The translations under genes and the position numbers were made by a program. Below the pieces are notes generated by a model. The model saw only the letters and a program-made list of their open reading frames with translations. It did not search any database and had not been told where the DNA came from. A stretch of DNA of 44,179 nucleotides from contig JADGNY010000049.1 of the NCBI GenBank assembly GCA_017883235.1, positions 1 through 44,179 on the forward strand, in the 5' to 3' direction. Below are positions 9,393 to 22,990 of this stretch, piece by piece (the stretch's first letter is position 1; the number at the start of each line of letters is the position of its first letter). The DNA comes from Thermoanaerobaculia bacterium (GTDB taxonomy: Bacteria; Acidobacteriota; Thermoanaerobaculia; Gp7-AA8).

Positions 9393-9530
9393 AGGCAGAA
9401 GGCAGAAGGCGGAAGGCAGAAGGCAGAAGGCAGAAGGCAGAAGGCGGAAGGGAGAAGGCGGAAGGGAGAAGGCGGAGGGGAGAAGGCAGAAGGCGGAAGG
9501 CGGAAGGCAGAAGGCGGAAGGCAGAAGGTA
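9393..9530 (+). repeat. GGCAGAA/GGCGGAA heptamer tandem repeat
   Basis: About twenty copies of a 7-base purine unit (GGCAGAA, GGCGGAA, GGGAGAA) begin directly after the phosphatase stop codon. The strand is almost pure purine, so H-DNA or slippage is possible. A pyrimidine-rich inverted counterpart lies at about 9965-10010. Confidence 0.9.
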
Positions 9531-10013
9531 TCTTCTGGTTTTTGGTCCTGTCAGCATAGAAATCAGGAGTGGAGGATGCTGCGCTGAGCTCCACTTCACT
9601 GTCATCGTGAGAGGTTGTGAAAAACCTCTGTTGCCCAACGGCCCAATTGTCATCCTGAGAGGTTGTGAAAGAATTCGGTCCCACAACCGAACAATTGTCA
9701 TCCGGAGCCGCTGAGCGAGCGTAGCGAGCGAAGTGCGGCGGAGGACGGCGAAGGATCTCAAGATGCGCGGCATGGGGCAGAAGCGCAGATGGGGTTTGTC
9801 GTTGATCTTCCTCAAACCACAGTTTCGCTCCTGCCCCAGGTGCTGCCACTGGAGATCCTTCGCCGTCCTGCGCCGCTCCTCGCTCGCTACGCTCGCTCAG
9901 CGGCGGAGCCTGCCCTGAGCGCAGCCGAAGGGGCAGGCTCAGGATGACAAATTGAGCGGTTCTAGTTTTCCGCCTTCTGCCTTCTGCCCTCTGCCTCCCG
10001 CCTTCCGTCCCCC
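9531..10013. repeat. Nested inverted-repeat region
   Basis: The main stem pairs 9705-9759 with 9852-9906 with few mismatches (core CGAGCGTAGCGAGCG), with a loop of about 92 bases. Direct copies of TGAGAGGTTGTGAAA occur at about 9608 and 9657. Motifs of the TCATCCTGAG/CTCAGGATGA type occur at both ends. The right edge (about 9965-10013) is rich in CCTTCTG, complementary to the purine repeat at 9393. No gene is supported here; overlapping frames translate only the repeats. Confidence 0.8.
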
Positions 10014-10066
10014 CCTCCCGTGACCTTTTTGTCACCGCCCTCGTCTCACCAATGGAGGGACGAAGA

Positions 10067-10213
10067 ATGCGCGACCGACGGGAAATCAGAACCATCGACG
10101 ACGAGCGTGAGCGGTACCACCGGGCTGGCGCGGCACGGCATCCGAATTCGCCGAGCAGTTCGGGACTGATCCAACCACGTTGTCCCTCGGGTTTCTGCAG
10201 CACAGCGGAATGA
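10067..10213 (+). CDS. Possible 48-residue ORF, unrecognised
   Basis: An ATG at 10067 has GGAGGGA nine bases upstream and opens a 48-residue frame beginning MRDRREIRTIDDERERYH. The good ribosome site and charged start resemble the beginning of a real protein, but the second half is not protein-like. It may be the stub of a gene cut off about 70-100 bases in. I do not recognise it, and coding status is doubtful. Confidence 0.2.
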   Translation: MRDRREIRTIDDERERYHRAGAARHPNSPSSSGLIQPRCPSGFCSTAE

Positions 10214-10276: not shown

Positions 10277-12346
10277 TCACCGCGCGTGCATCTTCTCTAC
10301 ATCCCAATCCTTTCCGGTGCCGTGGCAGGTGGCGCAGGCTTCGGATAGCGTCGTTCCGCCGAAGGTGGTGGTGTTGAGCCAGGCGTGGGCGGCGGCGTCG
10401 CTGTTGTCGTGGCAGCCGAGGCAGGCGGCGGTGGCGGGACCGTGCGGTGAGAAGTAGTCGCGCGGAGTGTTGACCGACGCGATGCCGGTCTGCAACGGCA
10501 GCGTGTAGGCGCCGGCCGCGTGACACTTCTGGCAGTTGCGGCGATCACCCGGGAAGCGGACCCAATTGAAATTGCTCGCGCTGCCGCTGCCGCCGTAGAT
10601 CGTCCAGTCCTGCGTCAGATTCTCGCCGGTATGAATGCGATGGATGTGGCGCTGGAAGGAAATCGCCTCCGGCGCGCCAGCCGATGCCGGGCGTCCCGCC
10701 GAGTCGTTGTTCGTCGGGTTGTGGCAGATCACGCATTCCTCGGTGTTCCTGCGGTTTCCACCGTGAAGGGCGAGCGTCTCGTGGCACTGGTTGCAATTCG
10801 TCACCACCACGGCCGTCCGGCGCGGCGCCACCGGACCGGTGACGGCGACATATTGGATCGGGTTGAAGGCCGCCTCGCGCACAACGATATCGGCCTTGCC
10901 GTCGCCGCGCTTCAGATTGACGTTGCGGGAGACGTCGGCGCCGATCGTCCATGTGCCGGTCGCGTCGGCCGGAAGACCGGCCGAGAACGTGTAGCTCGTC
11001 GTCCCCGCCGTGGCGTTGTACACGCCGGGAGTCGTTCCGCTGGCCAGGCCGCTCTCGCGCGAGAACGTCGAGTAGCTCTTCGTTGGTCCGCCGAGGATGG
11101 GCGCGAACGTGGCCAGCTTGGTGCCATCGACGGGCGTGCCGTCGCCGTTCTTGATCGCGAAAACCGCGGTCGGCTTCTTGCCTGCGCCGGCATTTGTGAC
11201 GCTCGTGATCGTGGCCGTCAGGCCCGTGAGCTGTTTCGATTTCAACGGATTGATATGCGCTCCCTGGACGGAGGCGTCGAATTCGCCGCCCGTGGCGGCG
11301 TGGCAGCTCGCGCACGCCTTGTCGTCGGCCTGCGCGCCGGCCGGATGGTTTGCGCCGGTGGTGAAATTCACGTCGTCGTGGCACGAGCCGCAGACGTCGC
11401 GGGTCGGCCGCGTGTACCAGACGTCGGCCTCGGCAGCTTTCGGGTCGTGGCAGGTGGTGCAGTTGCGGATGTCCTGGGGAAAGGCGACCGTCGACCAGTC
11501 GCTGCCGGCCACGTATGGTTTGCCGGCCTTGACGCTGGGAAGGGAGCTACCCATGTGAATTTTGTGGAAGAAGACCTTGCCGTTGAACGTGTTGCCGCTG
11601 GTGGCGTCGACCGTGTTCTCGACCGTGTGACACATCATGCAGAGTTTGACTTCGCGGCGGTTGCCGCCGTGCTCGGCGAGAGGGTCATGGCAGCGATTGC
11701 AGGCCACCGCGACGTTGGTCATGCTCCACACCGGCGCGGGCGTGCCGCCGTCCGGCCGAAAGTCCTTGAAGACGTTGTCGGCGAAGTAGTCCTTGCCGAT
11801 GACATCCAGAAGCGTCCGCTTCGCGTATCCGCCGAGGGTCAGCGTCTTGGTGACGTCGAGGCTGGCCGGCATGGCCGTGGCGAAGGTGTACTTGTAGTGG
11901 CCGACCTCGAGGTTGGTCCATGTGCCGCCGGTGTCGACCCACGGTGTGGTCACGCCGTTGCTGGTCCGCGTGGTGAACGAGTGGTAGTAGCGCGTATCGG
12001 CGTTCCACTGCCCGAGGACGAAGGCCGGGGCGATCGGACCGGGGGTCACACTCCCCAGGCGGTCGAGAGGCTGATCGAATTGATCGGTGAGATTGATCTC
12101 GACGACCGGCTTCTGGCCGGGGGCGACGTTGGTCACCGCCAGCAGCGTGAGCTTCACCCCCGGACGGAGGTAGGCGATGCTGGCGTCGCTCAGATAGGCC
12201 TCGATCTGATTCGGCTGGAAGGCCGGCGCTTTCGACGGGGCAGGCGGCGCGGCGGCGCGATGGCGGGCGCTATCGCCGGCCGCAAGCGGCAGGGCCAGTG
12301 TTCCGGCCGCGGCGAGAATGATGAGCATGCGTAATCTGAATTGCAT
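10277..12346 (-). CDS. OmcA/MtrC-type decaheme c-type cytochrome
   Basis: A 689-residue exported cytochrome with ten CxxCH heme sites: CNRCH, CMMCH, CTTCH, CGSCH, CASCH in the first half and CNQCH, CVICH, CQKCH, CLGCH, CATCH in the second. Five plus five hemes with beta-rich segments before each group is the OmcA/MtrC plan, a family that can carry electrons across or outside the cell envelope to minerals or other acceptors. The signal peptide (about 1-23) has no lipobox, so it is not an obvious lipoprotein, unlike Shewanella MtrC. The ATG at 12344-12346 has GGAGG upstream. It is the last gene of the operon, 18 bases after the tetraheme gene. No MtrA/MtrB-type porin is in the window. Confidence 0.92.
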   Translation of the reverse strand: MQFRLRMLIILAAAGTLALPLAAGDSARHRAAAPPAPSKAPAFQPNQIEAYLSDASIAYLRPGVKLTLLAVTNVAPGQKPVVEINLTDQFDQPLDRLGSVTPGPIAPAFVLGQWNADTRYYHSFTTRTSNGVTTPWVDTGGTWTNLEVGHYKYTFATAMPASLDVTKTLTLGGYAKRTLLDVIGKDYFADNVFKDFRPDGGTPAPVWSMTNVAVACNRCHDPLAEHGGNRREVKLCMMCHTVENTVDATSGNTFNGKVFFHKIHMGSSLPSVKAGKPYVAGSDWSTVAFPQDIRNCTTCHDPKAAEADVWYTRPTRDVCGSCHDDVNFTTGANHPAGAQADDKACASCHAATGGEFDASVQGAHINPLKSKQLTGLTATITSVTNAGAGKKPTAVFAIKNGDGTPVDGTKLATFAPILGGPTKSYSTFSRESGLASGTTPGVYNATAGTTSYTFSAGLPADATGTWTIGADVSRNVNLKRGDGKADIVVREAAFNPIQYVAVTGPVAPRRTAVVVTNCNQCHETLALHGGNRRNTEECVICHNPTNNDSAGRPASAGAPEAISFQRHIHRIHTGENLTQDWTIYGGSGSASNFNWVRFPGDRRNCQKCHAAGAYTLPLQTGIASVNTPRDYFSPHGPATAACLGCHDNSDAAAHAWLNTTTFGGTTLSEACATCHGTGKDWDVEKMHAR

Positions 12347-12364
12347 AGCGTACCTCCATCAGTG

Positions 12365-13579
12365 TCAGGGTTTGGTTTTCGCGGCCGGCCTCGCGGCAGG
12401 CTGCTGCCACTCATTGCTCACGAAGCGGATCAGAGCGGCCAGCTCGTCGGCGGAGAATCGCGGCCAGGGGATCTGCCGGTCGTTCATTCGGACCGACATC
12501 GCGGAGGCGTGGTTCCACATGCGGCGGGCGATCTCTTCTTTCGATTGTCCGGCGGTGATGCGCGACAGGGGAGGGCCGATGCCCCCCTCGCCGCGCGGGC
12601 CGTGGCACGACGAGCAGCGCTTCTCGCGATAGACGGTCAGGCCTTGATCGGCCGAGGCATTGTCGGCGTCGTAGCGCGAGACGAAGAGGTAGGCGAACAC
12701 GTCGGCCAGTTCTTCGTCGTGGAAGACCGGCGTGGACATTCCCATCGACTGCATCGCGCCGGACATGGCCGGCCAGTGGTTCCACATGCGGCCGGCGAGC
12801 TGGGTCACGCTGCCCTGGAGCTCGGCGCGGCCGAGGTCCGGGCCGATCGAGCCGCCGCGGCCGAAGACGGCGTGGCAGCGTGAGCATCCTTTGCTTACGA
12901 AGGTCTGTTTTCCTTTGATCGGATCGCCGGCCGATTTGAACGTGCGCGGGGCGCGCCGTTGTCCCTGCCCACGCACGTAGGCGAAGAGATCGAGAATCTC
13001 GTTGCCGCGGAAGGTCGGCACTTCCAGATTGCGCGTGTGCATCATGGCCACCATGGCCGGGCCGTGATTCCAGAGGCGCTGCGCCAGCTGCAGCGGCGGC
13101 GTGCCGCGCGGGAAGGCGTCGAGGCGCGGCCCGGTCCGTCCCCCCTCCTTGCCGATGGCGTGACACTCGATGCAATGCTTCTCGGCAAACAGCGACTTGC
13201 CGCTCTTGGCATCGCCCGGCTCGTCGAAGTAATTGAGGAAGTAGAGGAAGGCCAGAAGGTCTGACAGCTCCGTCCCTTCGAACTGAGGGCGGATCAGGCG
13301 CAACTCCTTCATCTTCTCGTCCATGGTCTGGGCGTGGTTCCACATCGCCGCGACGATTTCGTAGAAGGAGCCTTTGACCGAGCTGCGTCCCAGATCGGGG
13401 CCGATCCTTCCGCCGGCGCCGCGGACGGCGTGACACTCGACGCACTTCTTCGAGACGAACAGCAACTGCCCGCGCGCCGGATCGCCGATGATCCCCGCGG
13501 CGTGGGCCGTGGCGGCGGCCAGAAGGAGGGCGGTGAGGATGACGGCCAGCGCCCCTCGCTCTCGTGGTGCACTACTCAT
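12365..13579 (-). CDS. Tetraheme cytochrome c made of four tandem monoheme modules
   Basis: A 404-residue exported protein with a signal peptide (about 1-28) and four class-I-like cytochrome c modules of about 90-95 residues, with heme sites CVECH, CIECH, CSRCH and CSSCH. Each module repeats the same plan: GxxLFxxKxCxxCH, a Gly-rich GGxxGPxL, a helix with (M/L)WNH and a closing helix before FAY or FLYFL. The modules plainly arose by internal duplication. It overlaps the upstream NrfD-like gene by eight bases, so translation is probably coupled. It is a likely periplasmic electron wire between the quinol-oxidising complex and the decaheme protein (inference from gene order). Confidence 0.9.
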   Translation of the reverse strand: MSSAPRERGALAVILTALLLAAATAHAAGIIGDPARGQLLFVSKKCVECHAVRGAGGRIGPDLGRSSVKGSFYEIVAAMWNHAQTMDEKMKELRLIRPQFEGTELSDLLAFLYFLNYFDEPGDAKSGKSLFAEKHCIECHAIGKEGGRTGPRLDAFPRGTPPLQLAQRLWNHGPAMVAMMHTRNLEVPTFRGNEILDLFAYVRGQGQRRAPRTFKSAGDPIKGKQTFVSKGCSRCHAVFGRGGSIGPDLGRAELQGSVTQLAGRMWNHWPAMSGAMQSMGMSTPVFHDEELADVFAYLFVSRYDADNASADQGLTVYREKRCSSCHGPRGEGGIGPPLSRITAGQSKEEIARRMWNHASAMSVRMNDRQIPWPRFSADELAALIRFVSNEWQQPAARPAAKTKP

Positions 13580-14903
13580 GGGTTGCCTCCGGCAGATAGC
13601 TGAGCACCCGCGAGGTCACCTCACTCACCGAGTGCTCGCGTCCTTCGCGGATCTCCCAGATCGACACGATGGGGAAGAACTTGGTGAAGGTGGCGTACAG
13701 GAGGATGAACATGCTGACGAAGGCCGCGAAGAGCGACCATTCCACCCACGAGGGGACGTAGGAGGGGGCGGCCATGGGGATGCGCGGACTGGAGAGGCTG
13801 GGAACCACGATGAGGAATCGCTCCAGCCACATGCCGATCTGCACGGAAACCGATGCCGCCACCGTCCCCCAGACCCGCGTGCGCGTCCGCCGGTTTGCCA
13901 GCAGCGAGAACGGTACGATGAAGCAGGTCACCACCATCGTCCAGAAGAGCGGCGAGAACTTCCCCTGCGTCTTGGAGAGGAAGACCACCATGTGCATCGG
14001 CTCGCCGCCATAGTACGTGGTCAGGAACTCGGCGAAGGTGAAGTAGAACCAGAGCAGGCTCATCACCAGGAGGAGCAGGCCAAGGTTGTTGAAGTGAATC
14101 GGCTTGAGGTACTCCTCGAGGTGGTAGGCCTTCCGGATGATGGCCATGGCGATGATGATGGCGGCGATGCCGGAGAAGATGGCCCCCACCACGAAGTACG
14201 GACCGAAGATGGTCGAGTGCCACATCGGCTGAACGGTCATGGCGAAGACCCACGAGACCACCGTGTGCACGCTCACTGCGATGGGGATGACGATGACCGC
14301 CATGATGGCGATGGAGCGGTCGAGAAGGCGGCGCTGCCGGTCCGATCCGGTCCACCCGAGCGCCAGAGGGCGATACAACCATCGCCGCGACGGCATGCGG
14401 TCGCGCAGGATGGCGATATCGGGGATCAGCGGCAGAAAGAGATAGATCGTGCTGGCGGTGAGATAGGTGGCCACCGAGGTCACGTCCCACAGCAGCGGGG
14501 AGGTGAAATTGCCGAAGCGGAGAACGTTGAACACGCGGTCCGGGCGCCCGAGGTCGAGGATTACGCAGGCCATGCCGAAGAAGAGCACCAGCACGGTGAT
14601 CACCTCGGCGGCGCGGGTGATGGACCGCCGCCACTCCGCGTGCGCCAGACGGAGGATGGCCGAGATGAGCGTGCCGGCGTGGCTGATGCCGATGAAGAAG
14701 ACGAAGTTGGTGATGTAGAGGCCCCAGAAGACCGGCGAGTTCAGGCCGGTCACGCTCAGGCCGCGGCGAAGCTGCGTCCACCAGGCGAACGCTCCCCAGA
14801 GGCCGATCGCCAGGAGCGTTCCGATGAAGATCCAGAAGCGCGGCTGCGTGGTCTCGATCGGGGCGAGAAGCCGGCTGTCGTCGTTGCCCTCAAACGTCTC
14901 CAC
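13572..14903 (-). CDS. NrfD/PsrC/ActC-like quinol-interacting membrane subunit
   Basis: A 443-residue integral membrane protein with about ten transmembrane helices, matching the 10-TM ActC type of the NrfD family. This subunit binds the quinone/quinol pool and passes electrons to the ferredoxin-like subunit. Family-typical stretches include FFIGISHAGTLISAILRL in helix 2 and MWLERFLIVVPSL in helix 9. The start is a GTG at 14903, chosen because AAGGAG lies seven bases upstream; it overlaps the ferredoxin gene by 14 bases. Its neighbours (ferredoxin, molybdopterin-type subunit, ActA-like pentaheme) fit a Psr- or alternative-complex-III-like assembly. Confidence 0.92.
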   Translation of the reverse strand: METFEGNDDSRLLAPIETTQPRFWIFIGTLLAIGLWGAFAWWTQLRRGLSVTGLNSPVFWGLYITNFVFFIGISHAGTLISAILRLAHAEWRRSITRAAEVITVLVLFFGMACVILDLGRPDRVFNVLRFGNFTSPLLWDVTSVATYLTASTIYLFLPLIPDIAILRDRMPSRRWLYRPLALGWTGSDRQRRLLDRSIAIMAVIVIPIAVSVHTVVSWVFAMTVQPMWHSTIFGPYFVVGAIFSGIAAIIIAMAIIRKAYHLEEYLKPIHFNNLGLLLLVMSLLWFYFTFAEFLTTYYGGEPMHMVVFLSKTQGKFSPLFWTMVVTCFIVPFSLLANRRTRTRVWGTVAASVSVQIGMWLERFLIVVPSLSSPRIPMAAPSYVPSWVEWSLFAAFVSMFILLYATFTKFFPIVSIWEIREGREHSVSEVTSRVLSYLPEATHE

Positions 14904-15591
14904 CGGATTCTCCTTTCGAGAGGTAGATCACTTTCGGTTTGGTTCCCAGCTCTTCGAGGAGCCGGAATGCACGCGGGCCGGCGGCCAGCCGCGCCACCAC
15001 GCTTCGGGGGTCGTCGAGATCGCCGAAGAACATGGCCTCGGCCGGACAGCTCTCCACGCAGGCCGGCAGGTAGTCGCCGTCGCGGAGCGTCCGATCCTCC
15101 ATCCGCGCCTGATCGCGCGCACGCTGCAGGCGGTGATGGCAGAACGAGCATTTCTCCACCACGCCGCGCGGCCGCACCGAGACGTCGGGGCTGAGACCGT
15201 CCTGCATCGGCTGCGGCCACTCCGGTTTTTTCCAGTTGAATTGCCGGACGGTGTACGGACAGGCGGTCGTGCAGTAGCGGCAGCCGATGCAGCGCGCATA
15301 GATCTGCCCGACCAGTCCCTCATGGCCGATGACGGTGGCCGTGGCGGGACAGACCTTCACGCACGGGGGCCGCTCGCAATGCATGCAGGGAATGGGGACG
15401 AGGCGGAGGGAAGGGCGGGTGCCGTGCTCACCCTCGCGGAAGGGAGCGAGACGGATCCAGGAGATGCCGCGGCCACGCTCGGAATCGGCCTGGTCCACGG
15501 GCGGGATGTTGTTCTCCACCTGGCAAGCCACGACGCAGGCCTGGCAAGCGGTGCAGCGGTCGAGATCGATCACCATGCCCCAGCGCGTCAT
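14890..15591 (-). CDS. Four-cluster ferredoxin-like electron-transfer subunit
   Basis: A 233-residue PsrB/HybA/NrfC-type subunit. Sixteen Cys form four cluster sites: CTACQACVVAC (about 13-23), CMHCERPPCVKVC, CIGCRYCTTAC and a split CSFC...CVESC pair, enough for four [4Fe-4S] clusters. It should pass electrons between the NrfD-like membrane subunit and the molybdopterin-type subunit. No signal peptide; export would have to ride on the Tat signal of its partner. In canonical alternative complex III this domain is fused to the MopB domain in ActB; here it is a separate gene three bases after the MopB stop, as in Psr-type enzymes. Confidence 0.93.
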   Translation of the reverse strand: MTRWGMVIDLDRCTACQACVVACQVENNIPPVDQADSERGRGISWIRLAPFREGEHGTRPSLRLVPIPCMHCERPPCVKVCPATATVIGHEGLVGQIYARCIGCRYCTTACPYTVRQFNWKKPEWPQPMQDGLSPDVSVRPRGVVEKCSFCHHRLQRARDQARMEDRTLRDGDYLPACVESCPAEAMFFGDLDDPRSVVARLAAGPRAFRLLEELGTKPKVIYLSKGESGGDV

Positions 15592-15594
15592 GGC

Positions 15595-17958
15595 TCAGCT
15601 CCTCTTCCCTGGGCGGTCACCGGTGGGCGAGGCCTCGCTGACCAGGACCGTCGCCGCGGCGAAGTCGGGGAGCGACGAGATCGGCTCGCGCACGCCGTCG
15701 AGAAGCCGCAGCGGATTTTCCCCGACGCCCTCGGCCCAGCGGCCGCCGCCGCGTTTACCGAGACCGACCGGAATGGCTACCGCTCCGGCAACGACGCGCT
15801 CCGTGACGCGCGCGCGCACCACGATCGCCTCGTGCGCCGAGGCGACGCGCATCCAACTGCCGTTGCGCAGGTGCAGCGCCGACGCGGTGTCGGGATGAAC
15901 CTCGCCCCACGTCTCCCAACGCTCCTCGAGCCCCGGATCGAGCAGCGCCTGCAGGAAGGGCAGCTCAGCTCCCGTTCCGCCGGCGATGGGGAGCGGCTCG
16001 AAGAGGATCAGCGCTGCTCCGCCGGTGACGGCCGGGGAGGCGCCGGCAATCTGCTGCACCAGGTCGGGACGGAAATCGAAGCGGCCGGAGGGAGTACGCA
16101 GGACGCGGCTCCAGTCGCCGTGATCGTAGAACGGATCCCACCATCCCCCCGTCTCGCCGGTCCGTTTCCACAGCTCGTCAGCGCTGGTGTAGCCGGGCGC
16201 CCACCACCCCGATCCTTCCATCATCCGCACCCATGCGGCGTCGAACGGTGTGCCAACGATGGCGCCGCGCCGTGCTTCGAACAGACGGTCGATCTCGGCG
16301 CGGCTCAGGGCGGCCACGTCCTGCCACGGCAGCGCGCGTTGCAGTCCGGTGCGGCGGGCGAGGTCAAGGAAGACGTCAGCCGGCGCGCGCGTGTCGTAGA
16401 GCGGCTTCGACACTGCCGGCGATGCCACGCTGACGCTGGCAAAGGCCACCGACGGAGGAGAGGTCTGGACGTTCCAGGTCTCGAGGAAGTGAGGCTCGGG
16501 GAGTATCCAGTCCGAGCGAAGGGCGGTGTCGTTGGCGATGGTGGCGAAGGTCACCACCAGCGGTACGCGATCGAGCGCCGCGGTGAACGCATCGTGCGAC
16601 GCGGTGGCATAGAGTGGGTCGGTTCCGAGGATGAAGAGCACCTCGGCGGGATACGGCTCCCTGCTGCTCAACGCGCGCGCGAGCTGCTCGGGGTCGCCGC
16701 TGAGCAGCGACTCGCTGCCGGCGCCGTCGAGGCGCGGCTGGCGGCGGCCTGCCGCGGCCACGGGGTCGGGAGCATCGGCGGGCCAGGCGTCGATGGCCAC
16801 CTCGTCGGCGATGAGCACCCCTCCGGCGCGGTCGATGTTGCCGATCAGCGCGTTGAGGAGATGCACGGCCAGGTGGTCGGCCAGACGTCCGCCGAGTAGC
16901 GGGCCCTTATGCGGGGGAAGCACCAGCCCTTTCCGCGCGCCGGCCAGCTCGCGCGCCACCCGCAGGATGACGTTGACCGAGACGCCGCTTTCCGCGGCCA
17001 CTCGCTCGAGCGAGAAATGGTTCCCGAGGATGGCGCGCAGCCCGCCGCCGGGGCCGTCCTCGAAGCCGGTGCCCCGCTCGGCCACGAACTCGCGGTCGTA
17101 GAGGCCCTCCTGGACGATGGCGGCGGCGATGCCGAGCGCAAAGGTGGCGTGGGTGAGCGGCCGGATCGGGATCCACTCGTCGGCCGACGCGGCTGTGATG
17201 GAGAGCCGCGGATCGACATGAATGAGTTTGCCGCGCTGCGCGGTGTGGGTCTGGCGGAAATCGCCGTAGGCGCGCATGGAGTAGACCGGAGCGGGAGACG
17301 CCTCCAGAAACTCCGAGCCGAGGGAGAGGATGTAGTCGGCGCCGCGGATGTCGGGCGCGGGCGTCGCGCGCACGCCCTGCGTCAGGAACAGCGCCATCGC
17401 GCCGGCCTCGTTGCCGCGGTCGAAGGCGATGTCGTTCGGCGATCCGAACGCGGCCAGGAATTGCCGTGCCGCGCGCGTGCCGATGTCGCGGTCGCCGCCG
17501 CGAAGCAGGACCACGGACTCGGGGCGTTGCTCGTCGCGAATCGAGCGCAGCCGGCTGGCAATCTCCGCCAGAGCGGCTTCCCACGTGGCCGGACGGAACG
17601 AGCGCAGCGAGCCGCGCGGCCCCACACGCCGCAGCGGTACGCGGAGCCGGTCGGGGTGGTAAAGCGCCTGAAGCGCGGCCTGCCCCTTCGGACAGAGGCG
17701 GCCGCCGCTGATGGGATGGAGCGGATTTCCTTCGACTTTGACGATGCGGTCGCCGATGCGCCGCGCACGGACGCCGCATCCCCCCGGGCAGGCGGTGCAG
17801 ACCGACAGAACGAACTGTTCCGGCCCGCGCGGCGGATAGAGCGGCTGGTTCGACGTGGCCAGGGCGTCGGCAAAGATGCGGCCCCCGGTTCCGCCCACTG
17901 CCGCGCCGGCGGCCGCTCCCGCCATCAGACCGATGAATTTACGTCGGGCGATTTTCAC
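15595..17958 (-). CDS. Tat-exported molybdopterin-oxidoreductase-type subunit (MopB family)
   Basis: A 787-residue protein of the DMSO-reductase superfamily. A Tat signal (RRKFIG at 5-10, then an Ala/Gly-rich stretch) places it outside the membrane. An N-terminal [4Fe-4S] site is intact: Cys54, Cys57, Cys61 and Cys89. Later blocks resemble pterin-binding regions (DYILSLGSEF, LFILGTDPLYATAS, TDWILPEPHFLETW-like). Where PsrA/NapA-type enzymes place the Mo-ligating Cys or Ser, the sequence reads DRGNEAG (180-186), with neither residue. It may use another ligand or be a structural, ActB-like subunit. The GTG start at 17958 has AAGGAG eight bases upstream. Substrate is not assignable; the neighbours argue for quinol oxidation rather than a soluble substrate. 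Confidence 0.88.
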   Translation of the reverse strand: MKIARRKFIGLMAGAAAGAAVGGTGGRIFADALATSNQPLYPPRGPEQFVLSVCTACPGGCGVRARRIGDRIVKVEGNPLHPISGGRLCPKGQAALQALYHPDRLRVPLRRVGPRGSLRSFRPATWEAALAEIASRLRSIRDEQRPESVVLLRGGDRDIGTRAARQFLAAFGSPNDIAFDRGNEAGAMALFLTQGVRATPAPDIRGADYILSLGSEFLEASPAPVYSMRAYGDFRQTHTAQRGKLIHVDPRLSITAASADEWIPIRPLTHATFALGIAAAIVQEGLYDREFVAERGTGFEDGPGGGLRAILGNHFSLERVAAESGVSVNVILRVARELAGARKGLVLPPHKGPLLGGRLADHLAVHLLNALIGNIDRAGGVLIADEVAIDAWPADAPDPVAAAGRRQPRLDGAGSESLLSGDPEQLARALSSREPYPAEVLFILGTDPLYATASHDAFTAALDRVPLVVTFATIANDTALRSDWILPEPHFLETWNVQTSPPSVAFASVSVASPAVSKPLYDTRAPADVFLDLARRTGLQRALPWQDVAALSRAEIDRLFEARRGAIVGTPFDAAWVRMMEGSGWWAPGYTSADELWKRTGETGGWWDPFYDHGDWSRVLRTPSGRFDFRPDLVQQIAGASPAVTGGAALILFEPLPIAGGTGAELPFLQALLDPGLEERWETWGEVHPDTASALHLRNGSWMRVASAHEAIVVRARVTERVVAGAVAIPVGLGKRGGGRWAEGVGENPLRLLDGVREPISSLPDFAAATVLVSEASPTGDRPGKRS

Positions 17959-17971
17959 GGCATCGTCTCCT

Positions 17972-18508
17972 TTATCGATGACATGTCGTGCAATCGACCG
18001 ACACGTTCCTCTGTTCGTGGCACGCGATGCAGTCCGCCATCTTCAGCCGCTTCACGCTCCTGGGCGGCGAGGTGGTCAGGGCGATGCTGCCGTGGCAGGT
18101 CTCACAGCGAATGTGCGCCTTCATGACGTGCCGCCGGTGCGAGTAGAAGATGTGCGACGGCTGGCGGAAGAGGCTGTTCCAGACCAGAGGGCGCCCCTCT
18201 TTGAGAAGCCGCACCAGTTTTGCCTCCTCGGAGCTCTTTCCCTGCGGCTCGGAGTGGCATGTCGAGCAGACGTCCGCAGCGGGCAGCCCGGAGAACGTTT
18301 CGGTCTCATAGAACTGGTGGCAGGTCGAGCAACCGAGCTGGTTCTCCACCACGTGCTTTCGATGATTGAACGCGATCGGCTGATCGACCGACGGAGAGCG
18401 AAGGCCGCCCGTGACGAATCCGATGGCTGCCGCCGCGCAGAACATCACCGCGAATGCCGCGATGGCCAGCCGCCGGTCAGGTGCGCCGTCTCGGTCAGGG
18501 GAGGTCAT
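17972..18508 (-). CDS. ActA-like pentaheme cytochrome c
   Basis: A 178-residue cytochrome with an N-terminal membrane anchor (about 13-35) and five CxxCH sites: CSTCH, CSTCH, CETCH, CIACH and CTTCH. The pattern of QPIAFNHRKHV before the first heme and FYSHRRHVMKAHIRCETCHG in the middle is that of ActA, the pentaheme subunit of alternative complex III; extra His residues in these motifs can serve as distal heme ligands. It starts at the ATG at 18508, four bases after the monoheme cytochrome stop, and lies directly before the MopB gene. This is the strongest single hint that the complex is ACIII-like rather than a plain Psr enzyme. Confidence 0.9.
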   Translation of the reverse strand: MTSPDRDGAPDRRLAIAAFAVMFCAAAAIGFVTGGLRSPSVDQPIAFNHRKHVVENQLGCSTCHQFYETETFSGLPAADVCSTCHSEPQGKSSEEAKLVRLLKEGRPLVWNSLFRQPSHIFYSHRRHVMKAHIRCETCHGSIALTTSPPRSVKRLKMADCIACHEQRNVSVDCTTCHR

Positions 18509-18511
18509 AGG

Positions 18512-18838
18512 TCACTTCGTGGCGAAGCCGCGCACGAGCTTGATCAGCTCGCCGACCTGCGCCGCCGAGAGCTTCGTGCCGAATTCCGGCATCTTTCCCT
18601 TGCCGGCCGTCACGGTTTTCAAGAGGTCGGCATCGCTCAGCTTCTGAACCTCGGCCGAGCCGAGCGCCTTCGCGCCGATCTTCTTGCCCATCGGCGTGTT
18701 GCCGCTGCCGTCGGCGCCGTGGCACGGAGCGCAGCGGCTCTTGAAGATGGCCGCGGCATCGTCAGCCAGGCAGAGCGCGGGGAGGGAGACGAGGAGCAAC
18801 AGGGCGATGAACAGGGTGGTGAACGAACGAGTCTTCAT
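18512..18838 (-). CDS. Monoheme class I cytochrome c
   Basis: A 108-residue exported cytochrome with a signal peptide (about 1-24, ending CLADD) and one heme site, CAPCHG, followed by a Met-containing KGKMPEF that supplies the sixth ligand. This is the small soluble or anchored cytochrome c6/c553-like type. The true start is the ATG at 18838 with GGAG upstream; a longer frame extends to 19192 but only translates the preceding gene out of frame. Its ATG overlaps the stop of the preceding small gene (ATGA). It is a likely electron acceptor or shuttle of the complex, similar in role to ActE (inference). Confidence 0.92.
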   Translation of the reverse strand: MKTRSFTTLFIALLLLVSLPALCLADDAAAIFKSRCAPCHGADGSGNTPMGKKIGAKALGSAEVQKLSDADLLKTVTAGKGKMPEFGTKLSAAQVGELIKLVRGFATK

Positions 18839-19176
18839 GGAGTTCTCCTTTCGCCCTCGGCGGGCGACGTCGCGGACGATTCGTGTGCCAGTGTTTTCGC
18901 AATCACCTGATGGAGGGATGAGAGAAGCGCCAGCGGCGGCTTGCCCGCTGATTGCCAGGCCGAGGCGGTGAGATAGATCGTCAGCGCGACGTCGTCGACC
19001 TTGGCCTGGTCGCCAGCCGATTCGCCGTTCTCGAGCACCTCGCGCACGCGCAGATAAAGGGCGCCGAGCAGGTCGTTGTCGAGCTGGCGGACGCCGATCC
19101 AGCCGCGGAGGTCTTCTTCGGCCGCCCGGATCAACCGGCGCGCCATCGCGTCCAGTGCCTTGGTTGGTTGTGTCAT
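18835..19176 (-). CDS. Small helical protein heading the cytochrome operon, unrecognised
   Basis: A 113-residue protein, probably all helical and cytoplasmic, with no Cys and no signal peptide. I do not recognise the family. I start it at the ATG at 19176 because this lies about 25 bases downstream of a good sigma54 promoter; the frame is open to 19272, but that would place the start upstream of the promoter. It is the first gene of the operon and is coupled to the cytochrome by an ATGA overlap. It could be an assembly or regulatory factor, which is only a guess from position. Confidence 0.7.
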   Translation of the reverse strand: MTQPTKALDAMARRLIRAAEEDLRGWIGVRQLDNDLLGALYLRVREVLENGESAGDQAKVDDVALTIYLTASAWQSAGKPPLALLSSLHQVIAKTLAHESSATSPAEGERRTP

Positions 19177-19200
19177 GAAACGATCTCGCCACTCTACTTG

Positions 19201-19216
19201 CGCAAGGGCAGTGCCG
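19201..19216 (-). promoter_or_regulatory. Sigma54 (-24/-12) promoter of the cytochrome operon
   Basis: Read on the minus strand the site is CGGCACTGCCCTTGCG. The GG (-24) and GC (-12) have the required 10-base spacing and match the consensus GGCAC-N5-TTGC. Transcription would start near 19190, about 15 bases before the ATG of the first operon gene. The response regulator gene next to it carries the sigma54-contact motif GAFTGA. Confidence 0.85.
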
Positions 19217-19255
19217 CGGTGCCGGCTCAATCGTTTCAATACTTTAGTGATTGGA

Positions 19256-19275
19256 GTCTTGCAGGATTGCAAGAC
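19256..19275. promoter_or_regulatory. Palindromic upstream activator site
   Basis: GTCTTGCAGGATTGCAAGAC is a perfect 8+4+8 dyad centred about 50 bases upstream of the -24 element, near -75 from the predicted start. Bacterial enhancer-binding proteins bind such dyads. The likely ligand is the adjacent sigma54 response regulator (inference). It lies between the regulator's stop codon and the operon promoter. Confidence 0.7.
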
Positions 19276-19318
19276 CTCCGGGCGGGAGATTCGTGCACTT
19301 CCGCCAGTGCTGCGGCGG

Positions 19319-20662
19319 CTACATCTCCAGCTCTTTCATCCGCCGATAGAGCGTCGAGGCGTCGATGCCGAGACGGCGTGCGGCCTGTTCGCGGTTGCCG
19401 CCGGCGACGAGAAGCACGTGCCGGATGTGCTCCCGCTCGTAGGCGCGAACGGCGCTGCGGAGATCATCCGAGGTCTGCGCGGTGAAGGCTTCTCCTGAAA
19501 TCTCCCGCGGGAGATCTCCGACGTCGATCTGTTCGCTCTCGGCGAGCAGCACGGCCCGTTCGAGCACGTTGACCAGCTCGCGGACGTTGCCGCGCCACCG
19601 CGCGCTCATCAGCGCGCGCATGGCTGCGTTGGTCACGCCGGTGATGCGGCGGTTCAACCGGGTGACCAGCCGGCCGAGAAGGTGCTCGACCAGGAGTGGG
19701 ATGTCGTCGCGCCGGTCGCGCAGCGGCGGCAGCTCGATCTGCACCACCGAGATGCGGAAGAAAAGGTCCTCGCGGAAGCGCTTCTCCTCGATCTCCCGCA
19801 GCGGGTCGCGGTTGGTGGCGGCGATGAGACGGACGCTGGTGCGCGTCGGGCGCGTGGCGCCGACGCGGTAGAACTCCTGCTGGTCGATGGCCCGCAACAG
19901 CTTCGGCTGCAGCTCGGCCGGCAACTCGCAGATCTCGTCGAGGAACAGCGTGCCGCCGCCGGCCAGCTCGAAGTAGCCCGGCTTGTCGCGATGCGCGCCG
20001 GTGAAGGCGCCGCGCACGTGGCCGAACAACTCGCTTTCCATCAGCTCGCGGGGCAACGCCGCGCAATTGACGGCGATGAACGGCGCGTGATCGTCGCTGC
20101 GGGCGTGATGAAGGGCCCGTGCCACCAGCTCTTTCCCCGTGCCGCTCTCGCCGGTGACGAGGATGCTGCTGCCGGACGGCCCGACGCGCTCGATCAGCTC
20201 GCGCACGGCCCGGATGCCGCGGCTCTCGCCGACGATGGTGGTGCCGGTGACTTGCTCGGAGACATGCCTCCGCAGGTATCGCAGCTCGCGCTGGAGCCGC
20301 CGCTGCTCCACGCAGCGCCCGATTTTCTGAAAGAGATCTTCCGGCAGGACCGGCTTGAGGATGTAGTCGGCCGCGCCGGCGCGGAAGGCGTCGACGGCCG
20401 TTTCCATGGTTGCGTTGGCCGTGATGATGAGCAGCGGCGTGTCGGGGCAGAGGTTGGCCAGACGCGTAATGAGGTCGACGCCGCAGAGGCCGGGCATGAT
20501 GAGATCGCAGAGGATCACGTCGGCCGCTTCCGCGCTGGCGCGCCGGAGAGCCTCCTCGCCATCGGCCGCCGTATCGCAGGCATAGCCCTCCTCGCGCAGG
20601 ATGGCGGCCATGTCCTCGCGAAAGACCGCCTCGTCGTCGATCAGAAGAACGGTTGCCGTCAT
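19319..20662 (-). CDS. Sigma54-dependent response regulator (NtrC family)
   Basis: A 447-residue activator with three parts. The receiver (1-120) has the acidic pair at 9-10, phospho-acceptor Asp53 (LCDLIMPG) and a Lys after ILKP. The AAA+ domain (about 145-380) has Walker A GESGTGKE (about 171-178), GAFTGA (218-223) for sigma54 contact and a Walker B GTLFLDEI. The C-terminal Fis-type helix-turn-helix (about 405-447) reads [21 protein letters not shown] start it at the ATG at 20662, which overlaps the kinase stop (ATGA); the open frame runs to 21133 but only through kinase sequence. With a sigma54 promoter and dyad directly downstream, it very probably activates the cytochrome operon. Confidence 0.93.
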
Positions 20663-22641
20663 GGGTGAGCGCTCCGGGTGGAGGGGACGGCGGCGGCAAC
20701 AGGAAGATTGACGATGAAGCGCGATCCTTCTCCGGGCCGGCTGGAAACATCGATCGACCCGCCGTGCGCGTGTACCAGGCTGTAGCAGATCGACAGCCCC
20801 AGGCCGGTCCCCTCGGCCTTGGTGGTGAAGAACGGCTCGAAGAGCCGCGCGCGCACGCTCTCGTCGATCCCGCTGCCGGTGTCGGTCACCGCGATCCTGA
20901 CCAGTTGTTCGTCGACCGAGGTGGCCACTTCGAGCGTACCGCCGCCGGGCATGGCCTCGATGGCGTTGAGAAGCAGGTTCAAGGTCACCTGGAGCAATTG
21001 GTCGCGCACACCGCGGACCGGCGCGAGCGTCTGCTGCAGCCGCTCGCTGAAGCGGACGTTGGCCGCCCGTCCGTCGAGCTTGACCAGCGAGACCGCCTCG
21101 CTGGCCACGCTGTTCACGTCGATGGTCATCCACCCGTCGCGCGCGCCGTGCGCCAGGTGCGACACGTTCCGGACGATGCGCCCGATCCGATCGATCTGAC
21201 TCTGCAGGACGTCCAGGCTCTGGCGGTGAAACTCGGGATCGTTTCGCCGTTTCATCAACTGCAGCCGGGCGTGGAGCGACGAGAGCGGGTTGCCGATCTC
21301 GTGGGCGATGCCCGCCGCCAACTGACCGAGCACCGCCAGCCGCCCGGCGTGCAGCGCTTCCGCCTCCAGCGCCTTGCGCGCGGTCACCTCCTCCACCACC
21401 GCAACCGCCTGCACCACGCGCCCGTCCGCGTCATGAACCGGCGAGGCGACGCTACGGAAATACCGCAGGTGGCCCCCCGGTGCCGGCACGGTGATCTCGA
21501 TCTCCGACTGTTCCGCCCGCGCCAGGGTCTGCGCGGCGGCGCAGGCGATGCAGTTGCGCGGCTCGCTGTGATCGTGCGGGTACATCGCCCCCACCGCCGG
21601 CGCGGGCCACCCCATCCATCCCGCCAGGCGCAGGTTGACCCATGCCACCTCGCCATCCGCTCCGACGATGGCGATGCCGAGGCCCGCCGCGTCGAGCACC
21701 CCTTCCAGCCGCCTCTGTTCGAGGATTGCCTTCCGCGCGCTCGCTTCGAGGTCCGCCTCGCTCTCGCGCAGCCGCTCGGTGACCAGCGTCGTGAAGTACG
21801 CCGTCAGCAGCATCACGCCCAGAAACGACAGCACGCGCCCGGCCACGAACACAGGGTCGTGTGCGGCGTGATTGATGTGCATGTGCCCGCCGCTCATGGC
21901 CATGCTGTGCGGGAACAGCAGGATCGTGGAGTGCGGAAGGATCTCGAACATCTCGCCGAGAGCGAGGAAGGAGAAGATGGCGCTGCCGAACACCGCCACG
22001 GCAATCGCCTTCCGCTTCGGCAGGAGAATGCTGGCGATGATCACGTGGAAGAGGTAGGCGATCGACAGAGGGTTCTCGATCCCGCCCGAGGCGTTGAGCA
22101 TTCCGGTCAGCACGCCGAGGTCGACCACCGACTGGGCGATGACCTGGCGGTCGAAGTCGAAGCCGCGCTGCAGGGCGTGCAGAAAGAGGAAGTTCGCCAC
22201 CACCAGCACGCCCCAGCAGATCAGCAGTTGCGGCAGGTGCGCGGCCGAGATGATCCCGGTCAGCGGCACGGCGATGACGATGAGGGCCAGGGCGAATCCC
22301 GCCGCCACCCATCGCATCCGGATGAACCACCTCAGATGTTCGGCCTTCCACTGCCGGCTCTCGAGAAAGCCGCCCGCGCCGTCCAGCCGCTGCACGATTG
22401 TGGGGTGCTGGATCAGGTACCACACCGCGAAGCTCGCCAGCAGCAGCGATGCGCTGATTCCGCGAAGCATGTGCAGCAGGTAGAGCGATTGCGTCCCCAA
22501 CCGCGGAATGAGGACGTACGTTTCCAGTAACTGGTACCCGCCGAAGAACGCTGAAAGCCCGGCGCCCCCGAAGAGCAGCAGTGACGGAATGTCCGCCGCG
22601 CGCCGCGCAACGGCTCCTCGCTCATCAGGACGAAGGCCCAT
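20659..22641 (-). CDS. Multi-TM PAS histidine kinase paired with the sigma54 regulator
   Basis: A 660-residue sensor kinase. The N-terminal half (about 20-290) has roughly eight transmembrane helices, with a His/Met-rich loop at 245-261 (HSMAMSGGHMHINHAAH). A PAS domain (about 310-425) contains a CIAC pair at 364-367. The kinase core has HisKA with phospho-acceptor His447 (GIAHEIGNPLSSL) and a HATPase with N, G1 (DTGSGID) and G2 (GTGLGLSI) boxes. The likely start is the ATG at 22641 with GAGG upstream; a TTG three bases earlier is possible. It is translationally coupled to the regulator. The His/Met loop and Cys pair hint at metal, heme or redox sensing, but the signal is unknown. Confidence 0.92.
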   Translation of the reverse strand: MGLRPDERGAVARRAADIPSLLLFGGAGLSAFFGGYQLLETYVLIPRLGTQSLYLLHMLRGISASLLLASFAVWYLIQHPTIVQRLDGAGGFLESRQWKAEHLRWFIRMRWVAAGFALALIVIAVPLTGIISAAHLPQLLICWGVLVVANFLFLHALQRGFDFDRQVIAQSVVDLGVLTGMLNASGGIENPLSIAYLFHVIIASILLPKRKAIAVAVFGSAIFSFLALGEMFEILPHSTILLFPHSMAMSGGHMHINHAAHDPVFVAGRVLSFLGVMLLTAYFTTLVTERLRESEADLEASARKAILEQRRLEGVLDAAGLGIAIVGADGEVAWVNLRLAGWMGWPAPAVGAMYPHDHSEPRNCIACAAAQTLARAEQSEIEITVPAPGGHLRYFRSVASPVHDADGRVVQAVAVVEEVTARKALEAEALHAGRLAVLGQLAAGIAHEIGNPLSSLHARLQLMKRRNDPEFHRQSLDVLQSQIDRIGRIVRNVSHLAHGARDGWMTIDVNSVASEAVSLVKLDGRAANVRFSERLQQTLAPVRGVRDQLLQVTLNLLLNAIEAMPGGGTLEVATSVDEQLVRIAVTDTGSGIDESVRARLFEPFFTTKAEGTGLGLSICYSLVHAHGGSIDVSSRPGEGSRFIVNLPVAAAVPSTRSAHP

Positions 22642-22990
22642 CAATACCTCGCGTTTCCGGCGACTCTATGCGAACAGAGAGGCGTGTCCGCGCGCACCCA
22701 TCACGAGGGGATGTGTGAGGGATCACATCGGGGGCGGCGTAAGCGGAGCCGCGCGCCGCCCGCCGGACCCCCAGGCGGTGGACTCTGTTAGCGCCGTGAG
22801 AGGGCAACAACCGACTGGCGGAGGGAAGACGTATTCTGTTCCCAACTGATTGGGTGGCTGGTGCGGATCGACTCTCCGGCACCGCTCAAAGAAAACGACG
22901 GGAACTGCACGAGGTCGGATCCTCTCTCGCGCCGGATAGAAGTCTGTTCACTCGCGTCAACACGATCCTCTTTGTTGACACGAGCGCCCA
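22642..22990. other. Intergenic region before the first STAND gene
   Basis: No gene is supported here. GTCAACA (22956-22962) and TGTTGAC (22973-22979) form a 7-base inverted repeat with a 10-base spacer; the right half overlaps a TTGACA hexamer at 22975-22980. No good -10 is visible at the usual distance. This could be an operator over the promoter of the STAND gene; it is tentative. Confidence 0.4.

What the first reader, a model, noticed from the sequence alone, without database searches (positions are those of the whole stretch)
10277..19176. Split ACIII/Psr-like complex fused by operon to an OmcA/MtrC decaheme cytochrome
Gene order is small protein, monoheme c, ActA-like pentaheme, MopB, four-cluster ferredoxin, NrfD/ActC, tetraheme c, decaheme c; in total 20 heme sites and at least five Fe-S sites. 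Canonical alternative complex III has a fused ActB plus ActD and ActF, all missing here, and no porin for the decaheme protein is present. It suggests a quinol-oxidising complex that sends electrons outward through periplasmic hemes.
Basis: partly seen in the sequence, partly recalled or inferred. Interest (0 to 1): 0.65.

Follow-up and report, generated by a model that had tools for sequence, protein, structure and literature searches.

The report
Quinone complex wired to surface cytochromes
An Acidobacteriota-type genome carries a gene set for a membrane complex that probably moves electrons between the membrane's quinones and a surface cytochrome of the mineral-breathing kind; some relatives carry the same set beside genes for the outer-membrane electron conduit, so it is a candidate for a missing link in how these bacteria exchange electrons with the outside.

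Summary
Eight co-directional genes (window 19272 to 10277, minus strand) encode a small protein, a monoheme c, a QrcA/ActA-like pentaheme c, a split MopB with one Fe-S motif, a four-cluster Fe-S protein, an ActC-like NrfD, a class-I tetraheme c and an OmcA/MtrC decaheme c: 20 CxxCH hemes, five Fe-S sites. It is not Psr (Mo-ligand Cys absent), not canonical ACIII (own genome has one elsewhere, next to an oxidase) and not QrcABCD (all four NCBIfam cut-offs missed). It looks like a further lineage of the ACIII-Qrc clade, marked by the tetraheme c, found in 36 of 56 loci read. The 'missing porin' has two answers: the same genome has an MtrC-MtrA-barrel cluster on another contig, and in two other families (L137, L087) the set follows mtrC-mtrA-barrel genes directly. 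Best reading: a quinone module for Mtr-type extracellular electron transfer, more likely quinol-oxidising, direction unproven. Prior art is close: an ACIII-like cluster with a four-heme ActE was proposed for iron reduction in MBNT15. New, as far as my searches go, is its coupling to MtrCAB-type genes in Acidobacteriota, where a 2022 survey reported no adjacent quinone module.

The parts
20659..22644 (-). sensor histidine kinase (membrane part, PAS, HisKA, HATPase)
   Evidence: Pfam PAS_4, HisKA, HATPase_c; 82% identical copy in the same place in L015
19319..20653 (-). NtrC/AtoC-type response regulator (sigma-54 activator class); start chosen by me inside the longer open frame
   Evidence: NF008469 395 bits, TIGR01818 388 bits, both under cut-off; 83% in L015. 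Strict sigma-54 promoter pattern: no match
18835..19272 (-). small protein, function unknown, TTG start assumed
   Evidence: no Pfam or NCBIfam match; 61% in L014 and 67% in L015 in the same place
18512..18838 (-). monoheme class-I cytochrome c with signal-type N-terminus
   Evidence: Cytochrome_CBB3 47.7 bits; one CxxCH
17972..18508 (-). QrcA/ActA-like pentaheme cytochrome c
   Evidence: NF041781 QrcA 102 bits, cut-off 180; 5 CxxCH
15595..17958 (-). MopB subunit with twin-arginine-type N-terminus and CX2CX3CX27C, no Mo-ligand Cys
   Evidence: NF041783 QrcB 277 bits, cut-off 440; PDB best PsrA 184 bits; Mo-ligand column
14890..15591 (-). ferredoxin-like subunit with ligands for four [4Fe-4S] clusters (QrcC-like)
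   Evidence: NF041782 QrcC 303 bits, cut-off 400; each of the 16 Cys kept in 36 of 36 loci
13572..14903 (-). NrfD-family membrane quinone subunit, ActC-like
   Evidence: PF03916 123 bits; PDB best ActC 6f0k_C 242 bits; QrcD 49 bits, DsrP 128 bits
12365..13579 (-). tetraheme cytochrome c made of four class-I domains, each with WNHxxxM
   Evidence: Cytochrom_C 110 bits, four stretches; motif counts
10277..12346 (-). OmcA/MtrC-family decaheme cytochrome c
   Evidence: TIGR03507 418 bits, cut-off 209.3; MtrF 3pmq_A E 7e-35

Best explanation
The genes encode a periplasm-facing quinone oxidoreductase of the ACIII-Qrc clade with its own electron outlet. Quinone binds in NrfD at the periplasmic side, next to the proximal [4Fe-4S] cluster of the ferredoxin-like subunit. 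Electrons pass through the four clusters to the pentaheme c, then over the class-I tetraheme and monoheme c, and are exchanged with an MtrC-type decaheme cytochrome of an outer-membrane conduit. MopB is a structural subunit with one [4Fe-4S] cluster and no Mo catalysis. In this genome the decaheme protein either completes, or is an alternative outer head for, the MtrA-barrel pair encoded on contig C236. I think the usual direction is quinol oxidation and outward transfer. SHOWN: gene content, conservation, absence of the Mo-ligand Cys, cluster ligands, quinone-site residues, co-location with MtrC and MtrA-type genes in relatives. INFERRED: assembly into one complex, electron path, barrel identity, direction, extracellular acceptor.
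For: Family matches. Order mtrC-mtrA-barrel-mono-penta-MopB-FeS-NrfD-tetra on one strand in L137 (MtrC 494 bits and MtrA 225 bits, both over cut-off; order); the same order in L087 with a five-heme gene inserted and the decaheme cut by the contig end; MtrC, MtrA and barrel-type genes and the set on one contig, opposite strands, in L138. Of 9 sampled genomes with both a strong MopB and an OmcA/MtrC hit, 4 have them within 20 kb; 0.09 expected. Own genome: MtrC-MtrA-barrel cluster on C236. NrfD Ser138 and Tyr150 positions (QrcD numbers) kept in 50 of 50 rows; QrcC Y113 position Tyr in 35 of 36 loci. Own ACIII sits beside a COX1 gene on C170, so oxygen respiration has its own candidate quinol oxidase. 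No dsrA over cut-off and no RuBisCO large subunit, against a sulfate-reduction or Calvin-cycle Fe(II)-oxidation role.
Against: Direction is not fixed by sequence: the related Qrc reduces menaquinone, and ACIII-like clusters in Fe(II) oxidisers are proposed to reduce quinone. An OmcA/MtrC-type decaheme gene was seen in 6 of the 36 five-gene loci (window, L014, L015, L087, L137, L138); the others show other multiheme genes or none in the stretch read, some cut by contig ends. Beside the C236 cluster lie other possible quinol oxidases (a NapC-like hexaheme, and a cytochrome b6-like protein next to an 11-heme one). The barrel proteins match MtrB models weakly or not at all. Four genomes of the same family (G002, G009, G010, G012) carry OmcA/MtrC but no MopB match, so Mtr there does not need this complex.
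Confidence: 0.6

Rival explanations
1. Same complex, opposite direction: electrons from extracellular donors (Fe(II), partner cells) enter through Mtr-type cytochromes and reduce quinone, as Qrc does with cytochrome c3, with protons taken from the cytoplasm.
For: MopB and the Fe-S protein are closest to QrcB and QrcC; TMH2 Asp (QrcD D120 position) in 36 of 36 loci, where three ACIII rows have His; the proximal cluster keeps four Cys, where three ActB rows have Thr. Qrc is predicted to take up electrons in syntrophic sulfate reducers (PMC10553843 passages).
Against: Two residues shown essential in Qrc, QrcD D70 and Y110, are Asn (43 of 50 rows) and Leu or Ile (50 of 50) here (essentiality from PMC13059093 sections 8 and 9). 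No RuBisCO large subunit in this genome; other carbon-fixation pathways were not searched.
Confidence: 0.25
2. A second quinol:cytochrome c oxidoreductase that feeds the class-I tetraheme and monoheme c into an oxygen or nitrogen-oxide reductase; the decaheme protein is a bystander or a sink.
For: The tetraheme and monoheme proteins are class-I (Cytochrom_C/CBB3) domains, the tetraheme with WNHxxxM; such domains usually serve high-potential acceptors (recalled). Two COX1 matches beyond the ACIII-linked one, one of them partial.
Against: No oxidase gene lies among the ten genes of the window unit; a canonical ACIII next to a COX1 gene is present on C170. My maps of relatives mark only likeness to chosen query proteins and heme counts, so oxidase neighbours there were not searched for.
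Confidence: 0.1
3. A working Psr/Arr-type molybdoenzyme with an unrecognised substrate, with unusual cytochromes attached.
For: Fold and sequence of MopB are Psr/Arr-like, and the FS0 cluster motif is kept. One Cys-bearing MopB (L148) branches at the base of the five-gene side of the MopB tree.
Against: The Mo-ligand Cys of PsrA and ArrA is absent in the window and is not replaced by one conserved residue: over 31 five-gene rows the column reads gap 14, Gly 10, Pro 2, Val 2, Trp 1, Ser 1, Tyr 1. The alignment is loose there, and two rows (L144, L145) have a Cys close by, so loss is not proved for every member.
Confidence: 0.05

Closest known systems
ACIII-like cluster 4 of candidate phylum MBNT15 bacterium SHF-111 (PMC9386147, section 17 read)
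   Same: ActABCD-type genes with an ActE-like protein that has four hemes, away from oxidase genes, proposed for iron reduction.
   Different: Described there with ActD; no decaheme or MtrCAB mentioned in that cluster. Sequences not compared here.
QrcABCD (menaquinone reductase of Desulfobacterota)
   Same: Order multiheme c, MopB without Mo catalysis, four-cluster Fe-S protein, NrfD; best NCBIfam match for pentaheme, MopB and Fe-S subunits.
   Different: All four cut-offs missed; MopB keeps a Fe-S motif, whereas QrcB is reported to hold no cofactor (PMC13059093 section 3); QrcD D70 and Y110 not kept; extra tetraheme, monoheme and decaheme c; no dsrA over cut-off.
Alternative complex III (ActABCDEF), including split actB1/actB2 forms of Fe(II) oxidisers
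   Same: Pentaheme c, MopB plus Fe-S, NrfD closest to ActC in the PDB, monoheme c; actB1 of Fe(II) oxidisers has the same CX2CX3CX27C (PMC4643136 passages).
   Different: No ActD or ActF; proximal cluster ligand Cys instead of Thr; Asp instead of His139 and Val or Ile instead of Asp253 of ActC in 36 of 36.
[quoted passage not shown]
   Same: A cluster called similar to a pentaheme/Fe-S/NrfD/ActD set, beside an outer-membrane conduit.
   Different: Exact gene content of that one case not seen by me; sequences not compared.
Known inner-membrane partners of Mtr and related conduits: CymA, CbcL/MtoC/MtrH, ImcH
   Same: Would fill the same place in the chain.
   Different: Other protein families; named as the only three known in a 2018 survey (PMC6295460 passages).

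Membership tests
QrcABCD | each subunit over its NCBIfam equivalog cut-off | tested here: not met
   102/180, 277/440, 303/400, 49/570 bits; 0 of 297 phylum genomes over the QrcB cut-off
QrcABCD | QrcD D70 and Y110 (essential in the enzyme) | tested here: not met
   Asn and Leu in the window; Asp in 1 of 50 and Tyr in 0 of 50 rows, mapped through E. coli HybB D58 and Y99
QrcABCD | QrcD S138, Y150, R358; QrcC Y113 | tested here: met
   50/50, 50/50 (by offset), 50/50; Tyr in 35 of 36. These also occur in the own ACIII rows and in HybB where shown, so they do not single out Qrc
Alternative complex III | ActD and second NrfD-like subunit ActF in the cluster | tested here: not met
   none among the ten genes 10277-22644; own canonical ACIII with two NrfD-type proteins is on C170
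Alternative complex III | NrfD related to ActC | tested here: met
   6f0k_C 242 bits, other ActC chains 214-233 bits; but apart from the ActC rows in the tree
Alternative complex III | quinone-site His139 and Asp253; three-Cys ligand pattern of the proximal cluster | tested here: not met
   Asp, Val/Ile and a fourth Cys in 36 of 36
Psr/Phs/Arr molybdoenzymes | Cys ligand of Mo | tested here: not met
   absent in the window; MopB has only four Cys, all in the Fe-S motif
OmcA/MtrC decaheme cytochromes | over the TIGR03507 cut-off, ten CxxCH | tested here: met
   418 over 209.3 bits; ten motifs
OmcA/MtrC decaheme cytochromes | lipoprotein anchor at the cell surface | tested here: inconclusive
   no lipobox Cys in the first 70-80 residues in the window, L014, L022, L137, L138 or L142, so it does not discriminate; location not testable
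MtrCAB conduit | MtrA and MtrB genes | tested here: inconclusive
   absent in the window unit; on C236 MtrA over cut-off (205/192.2) and a 646-aa protein with no MtrB match but 26% over 622 aa to the barrel candidate of L087
all of these | measured activity and direction | not testable with these tools
   needs bench work

The most novel reading that the evidence does not exclude
A further class of inner-membrane quinone module for Mtr-type extracellular electron transfer, beside CymA, CbcL/MtoC and ImcH: a five-protein, Mo-free, NrfD-based complex with a dedicated class-I tetraheme relay, spread over several Acidobacteriota families and at least two Planctomycetota genomes, able to couple outward transfer to proton movement.
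Probability: 0.4. Interest if true: 0.7.

Novelty: new variant of a known kind. Interest (0 to 1): 0.5.

Why it matters
A 2022 survey of MtrCAB reported that its Acidobacteriia group (5 hits) had no putative inner-membrane quinone oxidoreductase near MtrCAB (PMC8805035, passages). The clusters read here (L137, L087) put a defined quinone module directly beside MtrC- and MtrA-type genes in Acidobacteriota. If right, it names a candidate for the missing step, explains why a decaheme surface-type cytochrome sits in a quinone-complex operon without a porin, and gives a marker to look for in environmental transcripts.

Tried and rejected
Psr-type polysulfide or thiosulfate reductase: rejected on the missing Mo-ligand Cys. 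Canonical Qrc in sulfate respiration: rejected on cut-offs, key residues and no dsrA over cut-off (one weak hit, 40 bits). The window complex as the cell's only quinol:cytochrome c oxidoreductase: rejected, a canonical ACIII lies beside an oxidase gene on C170.

Led nowhere or weak: PDB search with the C236 barrel candidate (one meaningless hit at E 1.1); strict sigma-54 promoter pattern (none; a loose GG-N10-GC pattern matched five places in this G+C-rich DNA, which says nothing); structure of MopB (mean pLDDT 74.7), whose best PDB fold matches are ArrA (TM 0.77) and PsrA (0.72) with no ActB among the 50 listed, which shows the fold only.

Limits and results against. The QrcA and QrcC models also match the own ACIII (ActA 86 bits, ActB Fe-S part 194 bits), there being no act model among the matches, so 'QrcA-like' does not separate Qrc from ACIII; 303 against 194 bits does speak for the Fe-S protein, and 277 against 71 bits for MopB. 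I had no Desulfobacterota Qrc sequences, so Qrc was tested by HMM and by residues mapped through E. coli HybB, not in the trees. Trees are 'quick' (SH-aLRT only) with long branches for ACIII rows; the NrfD tree has few outside families. Four rows (L100, L077, L148, L092) were labelled ACIII by me from gene content; L148 does not behave as ACIII in the residue checks, has a Cys at the Mo-ligand column and falls on the five-gene side of the MopB tree, so its label is probably wrong. The 67 stretches were chosen because they hit MopB or MtrC searches, not at random; 7 duplicates were dropped; the 20 loci counted as lacking the tetraheme gene include L139 (the other half of L138's contig) and L142 (an MtrCAB contig without MopB). 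Of the 36, 30 show all five genes and 6 lack the pentaheme gene in the stretch read; the tetraheme gene follows nrfD in 28 by plain distance and in 6 more whose open frame merely begins early, and lies before mopB in L078 and L084. MopB rows of 650 aa or less were dropped from the MopB counts. The 450-bit threshold was chosen; G187 and G234 are sisters, so the four co-locations are at most three independent ones; only two candidates per genome were scored, so misses are possible, and the weaker hits were mostly not read.

Recalled, not from a call: that class-I c domains are usually high-potential; that PsrA Cys173 is the Mo ligand; names of the motifs used for signal peptides and lipoboxes.
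Full report
What is there. On the minus strand of the window lie eight genes in a row, 19272 to 10277, with short gaps or small overlaps. They encode a small protein of unknown function, a monoheme c, a pentaheme c, MopB, a four-cluster Fe-S protein, an NrfD membrane protein, a tetraheme c and a decaheme c. Heme motifs add up to 1+5+4+10 = 20 and Fe-S sites to five. A histidine kinase and an NtrC-type regulator precede them on the same strand (22644-19319). MopB begins with a twin-arginine-type sequence (MKIARRKFIGL), in keeping with export (sequence).

What the parts are. NCBIfam puts the pentaheme c, MopB and the Fe-S protein closest to QrcA, QrcB and QrcC, but below each cut-off (102/180, 277/440, 303/400 bits); NrfD scores 128 with DsrP and 49 with QrcD. 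As a control, the own genome's ACIII gives 86, 71 and 194 bits with the QrcA, QrcB and QrcC models, so only the MopB and Fe-S matches speak clearly for the Qrc side. Against solved structures NrfD is closest to ActC of alternative complex III (242 bits), and the 8 sequences matched at E 0.01 are all ActC or ActF. MopB is closest to PsrA (184 bits); the ActB chains give 39-65 bits. The decaheme protein is a clear OmcA/MtrC member (418 bits, cut-off 209.3).

The MopB does not look catalytic. In the alignment the Mo-ligand Cys of PsrA and ArrA has no counterpart in the window, whose MopB has only four Cys, all in CX2CX3CX27C. Each Cys of that motif is kept in 31 or 32 of 32 five-gene rows (one row has gaps). 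The predicted fold is the molybdoenzyme fold.

Neither Qrc nor ACIII. I mapped the residues tested in Qrc (PMC13059093, sections 3 and 8 and part 1 of section 9) through E. coli HybB. Of 50 NrfD rows, the Ser138, Tyr150 (by offset) and Arg358 positions are kept in 50, while Asp70 is Asn in 43 (Asp in 1) and Tyr110 is Leu or Ile in 50. Of 36 five-gene loci, all have Asp at the ActC His139 position, all have Val or Ile at the ActC Asp253 position, and all keep the Cys that is Thr in three ActB rows (site names from PMC8076601, section 7). So the quinone-site acid and the proximal cluster look Qrc-like, the two proton-path positions look ActC-like, and the MopB Fe-S motif is like the split ActB1 of Fe(II) oxidisers (PMC4643136 passages).

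A lineage of its own, as far as tested. A profile of seven MopB (A1) hits 114 of 396 sampled genomes of the phylum at E 1e-60; most of the weaker hits were not read. Of 60 non-duplicate stretches chosen from such hits, four were set aside as ACIII, and 36 of the other 56 have the class-I tetraheme c with the Qrc-like genes; in 34 of the 36 it follows nrfD. 33 of the 36 tetraheme proteins show four CxxCH; the other three (L061, L063, L145) show two or three. In the NrfD tree the label 'with tetraheme' needs 3 changes against a shuffled mean of 15.0, in the MopB tree 3 against 14.8. The window sits with L014 and L015 (99 and 100 percent SH-aLRT), then with loci whose records are named Thermoanaerobaculia, Acidobacteria and, one step further, a Planctomycetota MAG. 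PsrA, ArrA and one Cys-bearing MopB fall outside the ACIII-type and five-gene rows (99 percent); another Cys-bearing MopB, L148, falls inside, at the base of the five-gene side.

The link to outer-membrane cytochromes. In the window's family the decaheme gene ends the operon (window, L014, L015). In L137 (family f72) one strand reads HK, RR, MtrC-type decaheme, MtrA-type decaheme, barrel candidate, monoheme, pentaheme, MopB, Fe-S, NrfD, tetraheme; MtrC and MtrA are over their cut-offs (494/209.3 and 225/192.2 bits). L087 (family f58) has the same order with a 398-aa five-heme protein inserted and the decaheme cut by the contig end. L138 has both sets on opposite strands of one contig, and L154 a tetraheme-less set beside a barrel candidate and an MtrA type. 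In all, 6 of the 36 five-gene loci show an OmcA/MtrC-type decaheme. The barrels match PF11854 or TIGR03509 only weakly (L138 E 7e-4 and 0.007; L137 and L022 not at all), so 'MtrB-like' rests on position and on likeness to each other (26% over 622 aa between L022 and L087). Of 26 sampled genomes with a MopB hit of 450 bits or more, 9 also have an OmcA/MtrC hit, and in 4 of these 9 the two lie within 20 kb; 0.09 expected (limits under Tried and rejected).

The same genome. Contig C236 carries a second OmcA/MtrC decaheme (56% identical), an MtrA-type decaheme and a 646-aa barrel candidate, with a NapC-like hexaheme and a cytochrome b6-like protein beside an 11-heme one nearby. Contig C170 carries a canonical ACIII (pentaheme, fused 1008-aa ActB, two NrfD-type proteins) and then oxidase genes. 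There is no dsrA over cut-off and no RuBisCO large subunit. The assembly is given as 100% complete, 1.27% contaminated.

How it most likely works. NrfD exchanges quinone electrons with the Fe-S chain; the pentaheme, tetraheme and monoheme c carry them in the periplasm; an MtrC-type decaheme protein on an MtrA-barrel pair carries them across the outer membrane. Direction is inferred. For outward: ActC-like membrane part, loss of two residues essential for quinone reduction in Qrc, class-I relay, no RuBisCO, recurring Mtr genes. For inward: Qrc-like MopB, Fe-S protein and quinone-site acid.

What is known. An ACIII-like cluster with a four-heme ActE was proposed for iron reduction in MBNT15 (PMC9386147, section 17). 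[quoted passage not shown] A pentaheme predicted as an ACIII subunit was reported as involved in extracellular transfer in Geobacter metallireducens (PMC12285248 passages). Qrc is predicted to pass periplasmic electrons to quinone in syntrophic sulfate reducers (PMC10553843 passages). A survey found no quinone module beside Acidobacteriia MtrCAB, though it did find a periplasmic tetraheme gene next to mtrB there (PMC8805035 passages); I did not compare that gene with the tetraheme here. Other papers seen as passages only: PMC10564751, PMC6295460, PMC5566968, PMC10734462. My searches showed no paper that describes MtrCAB joined to this five-gene set; they cover open PubMed Central text only, and I read passages, not whole papers. 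I therefore file it as a new variant of a known kind.

Noticed in passing
window 22991-27808, 33254-38152, 41398-44031: Three large proteins with the same FVSSTFxDMxAERDxL-type N-terminus, an NTPase-like middle and WD40- or TPR-type repeats at the end (read by eye); they look like STAND-type NTPases clustered on this contig.
   Followed up: no
window 9364-10203: Stretch beside the decaheme gene full of short repeats (SAFCLLPSAFRLLPSAF over and over when translated); probably non-coding repeat DNA.
   Followed up: no
window 20659-22644: The histidine kinase has a CIAC pair (Cys365, Cys368) in its PAS region, which could sense redox state.
   Followed up: no
L022 9876-14451 (own contig C236): NapC-like hexaheme protein and a cytochrome b6-like protein beside an 11-heme one, next to the MtrC-MtrA-barrel cluster: other candidate quinone modules in the same genome.
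   Followed up: partly
L146 14573-19000, L149 13501-18668: Five-gene sets followed by a protein that begins like the cytochrome b6-like one of L022, an 11-heme, a 4-heme and a further multiheme gene: perhaps two kinds of quinone module side by side.
   Followed up: no
L056 1279-4708 and 15502-21872: Five-gene set embedded among 4-, 5-, 8-, 12- and 13-heme cytochrome genes, perhaps a conduit type other than MtrCAB.
   Followed up: no
L153 5438-7932: MopB reads as two overlapping open frames here, a break or a sequencing error; left as it is.
   Followed up: no
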